Shown: positions 14,788-19,476 of the stretch, in pieces
Position numbering within the stretch: the stretch's first letter is position 1
Layout: each line of letters opens with the position of its first letter
Assembly (NCBI GenBank): GCA_021836865.1
Contig: JAKBHH010000023.1
Location: forward strand, 1 to 42,847
DNA length: 42,847 nucleotides
Direction of reading: 5' to 3'
From: Acidobacteriota bacterium
GTDB taxonomy: Bacteria > Acidobacteriota > Terriglobia > Terriglobales > Acidobacteriaceae
The notes under the pieces: model-generated
What the model saw: the letters and a program-made list of their open reading frames with translations, nothing else
Told to the model about the DNA's origin: nothing
Databases searched by the model: none
Made by a program: the position numbers and the translations under genes

Positions 14788-17700
14788 ATGACTGCACCAG
14801 CTCGCTATCCCGGCATCCGGGTTACCGCAAACGGAAATCAGTTGGTCTCGTACCATACCGAGACGCGCATTGCAGACGCCGGCGTGTTCTATCCGATCAC
14901 TCCCTCGACTGAAGGCGGTGAGCTTTTCCAGCAGGCGTATGCCGAAGGCCATCTGAACGTCTTCGGGCATAACACGATTGCGATTGAGACGGAAGGCGAG
15001 CACGCGGCCCAGGGCGGCGCGATTGCGCACTCAGTTTGCGGCAAGCGTGTGGTGAACTTTACCTCGGGCCAGGGCGTGGTCTACGGCGTGGAGCAGGATT
15101 ATCACGCGCCGGGCAAGGGTTCCACTATGGTGCTGGAGGTGGGCGCTCGCGCGCTGACCAAGCATGCGCTGAACGTGCACTGCGGCCACGACGATATATA
15201 TGGCGCACTCGACACGGGCTGGATCATGGTCTTCGGCAAGGACGCGCAGCAGGCGGCCGATCAGGCCCTGATTCTGCGCCGCGTTACCGAGCTTTCGTTG
15301 ACCCCCGGCATGAACATCATGGACGGCTTTTTGACCAGCCATCTGGAACGTACCTTCTACAAGCATGAGTCAGAACTGATTCGCGAATATCTCGGCTCGC
15401 CTGAAGACATCATCGATTGCCCGACAGAGGCGCAGCGCGTTCTCTTTGGACCCACGCGGCGGCGCGTTCCCAAGATGATCGACCTGACCAATCCGATCCT
15501 GCTGGGGCCGGTGCAGAACCAGGAACACTACATGCAGGGCATCATCGCGCGGCGCAACAACTTCGCCGAGCCGATTCTCCAGTTCCTAGAGGAAGCCTAC
15601 GAAAAGTTTGCCGAGCTTACCGGCCGCCGCTATGGCCTCGTCAGTAACTACAAGATCGACGACGCTGAGACCGTCTTCGTCTCACTGGGTTCTGCTGCTG
15701 AGAATATCGAGGCTGCGGTGGACTACCTGCGCCAGACGCGCGGAGCAAGCGTGGGATCGATTCACGTAAACGTGATTCGCCCGTTCCCTGAGGCGGCAAT
15801 TGTCGCGGCGCTCAAGGGCAAGAAGAATGTCATCATTCTGGAGCGGACGGACGAGGCGCTGTCGGGCGACAATCCGCTGGGACGCGATATTCGCACGGCG
15901 TTGTCGAAGGCGATTCAATTTGCCGGTCATCCTGCCGCCGAAGGCCTTCCCGCCCTGGCGATGGACGAGGTCCCGCACATCTATTCCGGAAGCTACGGAC
16001 TGGGTTCGCGCGACTTCCGCCCGGAGCACATTATCGGCGCGTTTGAGTACGCGACTGCCGGCCGCGCCCGTAAGGATGGCAAGACGGCTGCAGATGGCAC
16101 AAACTTCTTTGTGCTTGGCATCGATCATCCCTATGCGGTCATCGGTGAAGAAAGGCCGTCCCTGCTGCCGGAGGGTGCGGTGGCCGTGCGCTTCCACTCG
16201 ATTGGCGGCTGGGGCGCCATCACCACCGGCAAGAACCTGGGCGCGATTCTCGGCGATCTGAATGATCTGATCTTTGAACGCGACGGCGAACGCGACGAGC
16301 TCGGCAATCCGAAGGAAGTGATTCACGTCAGCGCCAATCCCAAGTACGGGTCAGAGAAGAAGGGCGCACCGACCAGCTACTTCATGGTTGCGGCCAAAGA
16401 TCGCATCCGCGTGAACTGCGATCTGCGCCACGTCACGACCGTTCTTTGCTGCGACCCCAAAGCTTTTACGCACACCAACCCGCTGGACGGTATGCAGCCC
16501 GGCGGCAGCCTGGTGTGGGAGTCCGACCAGGAAGGCGAGCAAGCGTGGGAGCAGTTGCCCCTGTGGGCGCGCAAGCAGATCATCGACAACAAAATTCGCG
16601 TCTTCACGTTGCCCGGTTTTGACATTGCCCGCAAGGCCACGGACCGCGGCGATCTGCAACTGCGCATGCAGGGCAACGCTTTCCTTGGCGCATTTTTCGC
16701 TTGCAGCACACTGCTGCAGGAGTTCGGCATCACGCAGGAGCAGTTCCGCGATGTGGTGCATAAGCAGTATGTGAAGAAGTTCGGCAAGTTCGGCGATGCC
16801 GTAGTGCAGTCGAACATGGAAGTGATGTTGCAGGGCTTTGAACGTGTGAAGGAGATCAAGATCGGCGAACTGAGCGCGGCCGATCGCTCCAGCCTGCGCG
16901 GCGCGGCTCTGCTGCCGATTCTCGAACTGGCCACTGCGGGCGGCTCCTGCGGCACCGGCTGCCGTTCCACACCGATGCCTGCGGGCCAGGGGCCGCGTAC
17001 GCCGGTCTCCAGTATCGCGGCTTTCGATGCGGAGTTCCGTTCGCACTACGGCTACGACCAGCCCGCCACACCGCTGTCGGCCATGGGCGTGATCGCTGCC
17101 GCAACCGGCGATACAGCATCAAAGTATGTGGCCCGGCGTGAGACACCGCTATACATTCCGGAGAATTGCACCCAGTGCATGGAGTGCATTTCGGTCTGCC
17201 CCGACACGGCTCTCCCCAACACCTCGCAGGACCTGAGCACACTGCTTTCAACGGCGATTTCCTACTACGTTGCTGACCCGGCCGAGCGCACGAAGATGCT
17301 GCGCGCGTTGCCGGAGATTGAGAAGCAGACCCGCCAGCGCATGGTGGCGGAGATGAAGACCGGCACGCCACTCCCCACCATTCTGCGCGAAGTCACCGAG
17401 CAGGTGGACGGATTCTCAGCCGCTTCCAAGAAACAGTTCTTCGACATCATCGCGAAGGTCCCGATGGCCTATCAGAAGGTCAACGCAATCTTCTCGTCGC
17501 CGGAGCGCAAGAACCCAGGCTCGGGCGGCGTCTTCTCGATCTTTGTGAGCGACCTCTGCAAGGGCTGCGCGGCTTGTGTGACGGCCTGCGGCGATCACAA
17601 CGCGCTGCGGATGGTGCAGGAGACCGAGGAAGTGAATGCCGAGCATGAGAGCGGCACGGCCTTCCTGGATCTGCTGCCCGATACGTCGCAGAAGTATCTG

Positions 17701-19476: not shown

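What the first reader, a model, noticed from the sequence alone, without database searches (positions are those of the whole stretch)
14788..19476. Giant PFOR-like enzyme with long insertions between cluster ligands and in the TPP domain
All PFOR hallmarks are present, but the chain is 1562 aa against roughly 1170-1230 in NifJ and Desulfovibrio PFOR. C1010 and C1145, the second and third proximal-cluster Cys, are about 135 residues apart where about 25 is usual. The two ferredoxin clusters are about 120 apart instead of about 55. A CxxxC pair (C721, C725) and 208 residues follow or precede as extras. A C-terminal extension in Desulfovibrio africanus protects against oxygen; a similar role here is inference. 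Long PFOR-like proteins are known in some soil bacteria, so the novelty is in function, not necessarily existence.
Basis: partly seen in the sequence, partly recalled or inferred. Interest (0 to 1): 0.6.

Follow-up and report, generated by a model that had tools for sequence, protein, structure and literature searches.

The report
Giant pyruvate oxidoreductase of soil aerobes
This gene encodes an outsized, stand-alone relative of the iron-sulfur enzyme that anaerobes use to oxidise pyruvate, with two extra helical blocks along its electron wire; one group of its cousins mostly sits inside the genes of a membrane ion pump and carries a built-in ferredoxin.

Summary
Window 14788-19476 (+) encodes a 1562-residue PFOR-type enzyme with all twelve [4Fe-4S] cysteines; by alignment C1145 is the third proximal ligand. 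Most of the extra length is two helical insertions, one between the two ferredoxin clusters (about 75 residues) and one right after C1010 (about 110). It is not an odd single protein: it belongs to a clade of giants (100/100 support) seen in Acidobacteriota, in the phylum of a Phycisphaerae MAG, in Persicobacter and in Gemmatirosa. The clade is separate from NifJ-type PFOR, and its sisters are compact or two-subunit forms without the insertions. Group A (the window) stands alone, with no rnf gene beside it in 39 of 39 loci checked. Group B has a C-terminal ferredoxin domain like Desulfovibrio ferredoxin I (14 of 15) and mostly lies inside an rnf operon (13 of 16 loci, usually rnfB-giant-rnfCDGEA). 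Best reading: a pyruvate:ferredoxin-type oxidoreductase, the only NifJ-like gene in at least one aerobic acidobacterium, with insertions inherited from an ancestor shared with the Rnf-linked group. Substrate, acceptor and oxygen tolerance are inferred, not shown. The CxxxC pair is not conserved. New variant of a known kind.

The parts
14788..19476 (+). Gene of the group A giant 2-oxoacid (pyruvate) oxidoreductase, 1562 aa plus stop; stand-alone, neighbouring recognised genes on the other strand
14884..15540 (+). Domain I, TPP-binding half (POR_N, residues 33-251) with Thr38, Glu71 and Arg121 kept
15664..15912 (+). PFOR core domain II (residues 293-375)
16321..16842 (+). Gamma domain (POR, residues 512-685; CoA role recalled)
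16948..16962 (+). C721-x3-C725 in a low-confidence linker; not conserved (57 and 58 of 70)
17167..17199 (+). Ligands C794, C797, C800, C804 of the first ferredoxin-domain cluster
17233..17511 (+). Insertion 1, helical (residues about 816-908) between the two ferredoxin clusters
17557..17589 (+). Ligands C924, C927, C930, C934 of the second ferredoxin-domain cluster
17806..17817 (+). Proximal cluster ligands C1007 and C1010
17821..18153 (+). Insertion 2, four helices (residues about 1012-1122; the first is 48 residues long), begins two residues after C1010
18220..18222 (+). C1145, third proximal ligand
18499..18630 (+). TPP/Mg motif GDGGMGDIGYQN ... DTQVYSNTGGQ (residues 1238-1281)
18847..18849 (+). 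C1354, fourth proximal ligand
19351..19473 (+). C-terminal tail (residues about 1522-1562) beyond the aligned PFOR core, without Cys

Best explanation
The gene encodes a single-chain pyruvate (2-oxoacid):ferredoxin-type oxidoreductase of a family separate from NifJ. As in PFOR, thiamine diphosphate decarboxylates pyruvate, CoA accepts the acetyl group, and electrons leave through three [4Fe-4S] clusters to a separate small carrier (ferredoxin or flavodoxin). The two helical insertions lie along this electron path in the sequence. They were most simply acquired once, in the ancestor of the giants. In group B the same body carries a tethered ferredoxin and is mostly encoded within the operon of the Rnf ion pump. 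In group A, which includes the window, the enzyme works without Rnf and without the tethered ferredoxin, and in some aerobic acidobacteria it is a candidate route from pyruvate to acetyl-CoA. Shown: homology, ligand conservation, insertions, clade, Rnf linkage of group B, no rnfB or rnfD match in the window's genome. Inferred: substrate, acceptor, direction, and the role of the insertions as an insulating or docking collar.
For: Pfam POR_N, PFOR_II, POR and TPP domains in PFOR order. All 12 ligands in 70 of 70 rows. Thr38, Glu71, Arg121, Asp1240 and Asn1274 sit in columns shared with NifJ; one group B row, L143, has Ser for Thr38 (catalytic meaning recalled). Predicted structure of 690-1562: pLDDT 83.9, pTM 0.86, insertion helices mostly over 90. 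Best structural matches are the PFORs of D. africanus and Moorella, Z about 23, with 444-480 of 873 residues aligned; that the unaligned rest includes the insertions is inferred from the sequence alignment. Giants form one clade 100/100, 28 rows. rnf genes beside the giant in 13 of 16 group B loci and in 0 of 39 group A loci. FdI-like motif in 14 of 15 B and 0 of 13 A rows; for the one tested, L149, the best PDB match is D. africanus ferredoxin I, E 8e-6. No rnfD, rnfB or FdI-like match in G000. Terracidiphilus gabretensis (100% complete) has this giant as its only NifJ-like gene, no aceE match, and is listed as aerobic (PMC5900883, passage).
Against: No biochemical test exists here. The protein falls far below the curated PFOR cut-off (351 against 911 bits). 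The substrate pocket motif differs from NifJ (HCGHDD for FGDHxD), so another 2-oxoacid is possible. The acceptor was not identified. The loops with the proximal ligands are the weak parts of the model. Most genomes of the genus also have an ordinary PFOR (20 of 25 over the cut-off, the window's among them). A fused E1 of a 2-oxoacid dehydrogenase is present and may also oxidise pyruvate, and three group A genomes of other genera (G151, G072, G042) have aceE.
Confidence: 0.62

Rival explanations
1. An oxygen-protected PFOR: the two helical insertions cover the proximal cluster and the inter-cluster path and allow work in air, replacing the D. africanus C-terminal cap.
For: Insertion 2 starts two residues after the proximal ligand C1010 and is confidently helical. 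The giant is the sole NifJ-like gene in aerobic T. gabretensis.
Against: Compact sisters without insertions occur in the same family as the window's genome (13 of 22 positive genomes). Synechocystis PFOR is reported stable in oxygen (PMC8887894, abstract and passages) although of ordinary length (recalled). Group B loci mostly include Rnf, typical of low-potential metabolism.
Confidence: 0.3
2. The insertions are docking surfaces for a protein partner: Rnf in group B, an unknown complex or carrier in group A.
For: Insertions are shared by both groups, and group B is mostly embedded in rnf operons.
Against: Group A has no conserved neighbour gene: the commonest neighbour family is near 10 of 83 loci. 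The insertions are also present in group B loci without rnf beside them (L143, L145, L155).
Confidence: 0.35
3. It acts on another 2-oxoacid (for example a branched or aromatic one) rather than pyruvate.
For: The pocket motif HxGHDD is invariant in the 42 giants and compact rows examined and differs from FGDHxD in 7 NifJ rows. The window's genome keeps an ordinary PFOR for pyruvate.
Against: With an 11-row profile of the clade the closest solved relatives are PFORs (365 and 361 bits), then Methanosarcina PorA (208), then oxalate oxidoreductase (154). Thr and Arg positions of the pyruvate site are kept. It is the only NifJ-like gene in T. gabretensis.
Confidence: 0.25
4. Just an ordinary NifJ-type PFOR with loops.
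For: Same domain order and ligands.
Against: Outside the NifJ clade with 100/100 support on both sides; 351 bits against a 911 cut-off that full-length ordinary PFORs of the same genus pass at about 1785-1816.
Confidence: 0.05

Closest known systems
NifJ-type pyruvate:ferredoxin/flavodoxin oxidoreductase (TIGR02176; D. africanus 1b0p/7plm, Moorella 6cin)
   Same: Domain order, TPP motifs, twelve cluster cysteines, core fold of the second half (Z about 23)
   Different: 24-27% identity over the N-terminal 800 residues, two helical insertions, different pocket motif, separate clade
Group B giants, mostly in rnf operons (Persicobacter psychrovividus pPP1, Gemmatirosa kalamazoonensis plasmid 1, MAG loci)
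   Same: Both insertions, whole-length homology at 34-38% identity, same clade
   Different: Group B has a C-terminal FdI-like domain (14 of 15) and rnf neighbours (13 of 16); the window protein has neither
Compact and two-subunit sisters (L129-L141, L164)
   Same: 35-39% identity in the alpha half of the split forms, same HxGHDD motif
   Different: No insertions (spacings 63-64 and 30 in three fused rows), often split into genes of about 660 and 530 aa
Heterotetrameric PorABGD / oxalate oxidoreductase
   Same: Homologous alpha, gamma and beta parts
   Different: Separate subunits, lower profile scores

Membership tests
NifJ-type PFOR (TIGR02176) | Score over the curated cut-off (911 bits) | tested here: not met
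   351 bits; full-length ordinary PFORs of the genus score 1785-1816
NifJ-type PFOR (TIGR02176) | Twelve Cys ligands of three [4Fe-4S] clusters | tested here: met
   70 of 70 giant rows, same columns in five NifJ rows
NifJ-type PFOR (TIGR02176) | Branches within the NifJ clade | tested here: not met
   7 NifJ rows form one side of a branch, 28 giants another, each 100/100
Broad family of 2-oxoacid:ferredoxin oxidoreductases | POR_N, PFOR_II, POR and TPP domains | tested here: met
   All four over Pfam gathering scores
Broad family of 2-oxoacid:ferredoxin oxidoreductases | CoA-dependent oxidation of a 2-oxoacid with ferredoxin | not testable with these tools
   needs purified enzyme
D. africanus type C-terminal protective domain VII | Extension after residue 1170 with a Cys1195-Cys1212 disulfide | tested here: not met
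   No Cys after C1505; structural alignment to PFOR ends near residue 1522 (feature from a passage)
Rnf-linked giant (group B) | rnf genes beside the gene | tested here: not met
   none among the window genes named by profile and in 0 of 39 group A loci; no rnfD or rnfB match in G000
Rnf-linked giant (group B) | C-terminal FdI-like domain | tested here: not met
   motif absent from 13 of 13 A rows, no match in G000
Pyruvate:NADP oxidoreductase (Euglena type, recalled) | Fused flavodoxin/FAD/NADPH reductase domain | tested here: not met
   no such domain in the Pfam scan

The most novel reading that the evidence does not exclude
Group B giants are pyruvate oxidoreductases hard-wired to the Rnf pump: electrons from pyruvate pass through the tethered ferredoxin straight into RnfB/RnfC, so that pyruvate oxidation reduces NAD+ and pumps ions with no free ferredoxin. 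Group A, in the window, is a branch without pump and tether that turned the enzyme into a stand-alone pyruvate oxidation route of aerobic soil acidobacteria.
Probability: 0.33. Interest if true: 0.82.

Novelty: new variant of a known kind. Interest (0 to 1): 0.58.

Why it matters
If group B is physically coupled to Rnf, it would be a way of turning pyruvate oxidation directly into an ion gradient, and the window's group would show how such an enzyme is carried into aerobic life. It also adds a branch of 2-oxoacid oxidoreductases that falls under the curated PFOR cut-off, in soil bacteria whose route from pyruvate to acetyl-CoA is unclear: aceE was not found in any of 8 genomes of the window's genus, though a fused E1 of uncertain substrate is present. 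Named organisms make it testable: Occallatibacter (Terracidiphilus) gabretensis and Acidicapsa dinghuensis for group A, Persicobacter psychrovividus and Gemmatirosa kalamazoonensis for group B.

Tried and rejected
Ordinary NifJ with loops: rejected by tree and score. C721/C725 as an extra cluster or redox switch: not conserved, low-confidence linker. D. africanus cap: no counterpart. A conserved gene partner of group A: none seen; the commonest neighbour family is near 10 of 83 loci (two of the 83 are group B), by a crude ORF caller. Known domain in the insertions: a profile of insertion 2 against solved sequences gave four matches at E 0.04 to 0.8, none convincing, insertion 1 nothing; the insertions were not folded alone, so a known fold is not excluded. 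A second gene for the FdI-like ferredoxin in group A genomes: of 22 genomes searched, the 15 of group A and 2 of compact type gave no match, the 5 of group B did. Promoter and terminator scan: no more than in shuffles. DNA search of plasmids: no match. In print: ten literature searches; in the titles and abstract starts listed, and several lists were capped, I saw no paper on a PFOR gene inside an rnf operon or on this long form; only open-licence papers are held. I opened passages found by search terms in PMC5900883, PMC4014512, PMC3534657, PMC4215793, PMC12935467, PMC6018796, PMC12174285, PMC8887894 and PMC8945911; none was read whole. PMC5900883 reports por/nifJ homologues in select acidobacterial genomes; the passages seen do not mention length.

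Rows dropped before counts: of 407 relatives found in genome contigs the tool kept the best 80; 69 ORFs passed my full-length limits, L001 and two plasmid rows among them. L142 was read in a wrong frame and was dropped from the second tree. L158 (group A) was not in the trees or. The Rnf neighbour check used 39 group A loci, mostly those with long flanks, out of more than 80 held. G343 (45% identity, 819 aa frame) was left unassigned in the phylum count. Match lists were cut by the tool at the weak end. Gene calls in context loci were made by my own script, and some N-terminal extensions (L116, L151, L152, L154) are likely spurious.

Full report
What is there. The ORF at 14788-19476 (+) reads as 1562 residues. 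The recognised neighbours are on the other strand: a short-chain dehydrogenase upstream and cinA downstream, so the gene stands alone. Pfam finds POR_N, PFOR_II, POR, 4Fe-4S motifs and the TPP C-terminal domain in PFOR order. The best NCBIfam model is TIGR02176 (PFOR) with 351 bits against a cut-off of 911. The closest solved proteins are the PFORs of D. africanus and Moorella.

Ligands and insertions. In an alignment with five ordinary PFORs (the own genome's, another acidobacterial one, E. coli, Pantoea, Fusobacterium) the twelve cluster cysteines fall in the same columns. They are Cys in 70 of 70 full-length giant rows; C721 and C725 are Cys in 57 and 58 of 70. The C804-C924 and C1010-C1145 spacings are 120-134 and 88-135 in 28 giants, 63-64 and 30 in three fused compact sisters, and 44-51 and 25 in seven NifJ rows. 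Smaller additions lie at residues 184-280, 331-404, 474-520, 690-794 and after C1354, and the stretch 1145-1240 is shorter than in NifJ.

Structure. AlphaFold2 of residues 690-1562 gave pLDDT 83.9 and pTM 0.86. Insertion 1 is a set of helices (model 127-219). Insertion 2 begins two residues after C1010 with a 48-residue helix and has four helices in all (model 323-433). The short loops that hold C1007/C1010 and C1145 are weak (mean pLDDT 54 and 68), so the ligand assignment rests on the alignment. VIA-align puts PFORs 7plm, 6cin and 1b0p on top with Z about 23, 444-480 of 873 residues aligned and 3.9-4.5 A rmsd, ending at PFOR residue 1169-1170; oxalate oxidoreductase, Por and OGOR beta subunits follow at Z 11-19 and other TPP enzymes at about 10. 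A group B giant (L149) gave the same two helical blocks, the second half of insertion 2 less sure, plus a C-terminal domain at pLDDT about 90 (overall 84.7, pTM 0.86). Cofactors, dimer and the N-terminal half were not modelled, so where the insertions lie relative to the partner subunit is unknown.

Family. Relatives at 66-99% identity fill the best 80 loci of genome contigs; their titles are acidobacterial except three titled Acidimicrobiia and one Phycisphaerae. In plasmid records two whole-length relatives at 35-36% occur, in Persicobacter psychrovividus and Gemmatirosa kalamazoonensis. In a draw of 396 genomes of the window's phylum I count 24 with a group A giant or piece of one at 60% identity or more (own included) and 7 with a group B giant. 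In 199 genomes of the phylum of L082 I count 16 (59% or more) and 12, two genomes having both. In 120 genomes of the window's family, at E 1e-150 or better, 22 have one member of the clade each: 9 giants (frames of 1581-1674 aa) and 13 compact ones (1142-1260 aa). The tree of the alpha part (residues 6-690; LG+G4, one search) puts 28 giants together at 100/100, 14 compact rows together at 100/99, and 7 NifJ rows together at 100/100; A (13) and B (15) are separate groups at 100/100 each (an earlier tree with one misread row gave 96/80 for A plus B). The simplest reading is one gain of both insertions at the base of the giants.

Rnf link of group B. Named by profile in sampled loci: rnfC in L115, L149 and L154 (495-517 bits, over the cut-off), rnfD in L115 and L150 (325-331, over), rnfE in L115 and L150 (over), rnfA in L115 (234, just over), rnfG in L115 (86, under its cut-off of 102), and RnfB-like genes in L115, L144 and L150 (TIGR01944 68, 53 and 96 bits against 68.7). 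Searching 16 B loci with the Persicobacter proteins, rnf genes are beside the giant in 13, on the same strand. Eleven have rnfB just upstream and rnfC just downstream, nine of them the whole order rnfB-giant-rnfC-D-G-E-A; in Persicobacter rnfB is last, in L163 no rnfB was found, and L143, L145 and L155 have none of the genes. By genome search an rnfB match lies directly upstream of the giant in 14 of 17 B genomes, six over the family cut-off and eight under it. The C-terminal CxxCxxC...C motif is in 14 of 15 B rows and no A row; the L149 domain's best solved match is D. africanus ferredoxin I, E 8e-6, and it finds the same domain in all 5 B genomes searched.

Group A and the window. Of 39 A loci none has an rnf gene in the DNA held. 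Of 20 genomes with only a group A giant, one (G478) has rnfD and rnfB over the cut-offs, on another contig than the giant; two have rnfD matches under the cut-off (G239, G061) and two weak rnfB matches (G445, G502); G000 has none. G005 and G044 among the 20 appear to be the same genome, since a match has identical coordinates. No FdI-like match was found in G000. G000 also has an ordinary PFOR on another contig, as do most genomes of the genus: 20 of 25 are over the PFOR cut-off. G005 (= G044, Terracidiphilus gabretensis S55 by locus L028) is in the same genus as the window and has the giant as its only NifJ-like gene; G012 and G021, 91-92% complete, also show no match over the cut-off. aceE was found in 0 of 8 genomes of the genus, but over the cut-off in three group A genomes of other genera (G151, G072, G042). 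The window's genome has a fused E1 whose PDH scores stay under the cut-offs. T. gabretensis is listed as aerobic (PMC5900883, table passage); strain JP12 of a sister species did not grow without oxygen (PMC12935467, passage).

How it most likely works. Thr38, Glu71, Arg121, Asp1240 and Asn1274 occupy the columns of the TPP and pyruvate site of PFOR (roles recalled), so a PFOR-like reaction is most likely, with electrons going through three clusters to a mobile carrier. The neighbouring motif is HCGHDD instead of FGDHxD, invariant within the clade's 42 rows apart from its second position, so a different 2-oxoacid is not excluded. In the sequence the insertions sit at the proximal cluster and between the two ferredoxin clusters, that is, along the electron path; insulation and docking are both open, and presence in both groups means they cannot be explained by Rnf alone or by aerobic life alone.

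Verdict. Observation confirmed, interpretation partly supported. New variant of a known kind. The Rnf linkage of group B is the more surprising part and lies outside the window.

Noticed in passing
G349:C18:76666-77210 and G231:C6:94161-94681: FdI-like ferredoxin domains (frames of 798 and 768 aa) directly beside rnfB matches on contigs that also hold a second rnfD of two group B genomes; may be another protein with a tethered ferredoxin.
   Followed up: no
L129, L130, L134, L135, L137: The two-subunit sister enzyme has a gene of one family nearby in five loci; two of the five were named by profile as LysR-type regulators. In L136 a CBS-domain gene lies between alpha and beta genes.
   Followed up: partly
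L115 and L116: Whole-length group B giants with rnf genes lie on plasmids of about 1.1 Mb of Persicobacter psychrovividus and Gemmatirosa kalamazoonensis; no gene is listed there in the collection's table.
   Followed up: yes
window 675-2096: Si-specific NAD(P)+ transhydrogenase (SthA-like, 664 bits against 465); the lipoamide dehydrogenase model stays under its cut-off.
   Followed up: partly
window 2464-13448 and 35969-38341: Carbohydrate genes: glucuronyl esterase-like, GH39, GH38, GH36.
   Followed up: no
window 4119-7226: 1035 aa protein without a Pfam match but with the acidobacterial VWA domain TIGR03436.
   Followed up: partly
window 7347-7979, 26141-27037, 27441-28409: ORFs of 210, 298 and 322 aa without a Pfam or NCBIfam match at the limits used.
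   Followed up: no
G490 and G465: Genomes that hold both a group A and a group B giant, useful for telling their roles apart.
   Followed up: no
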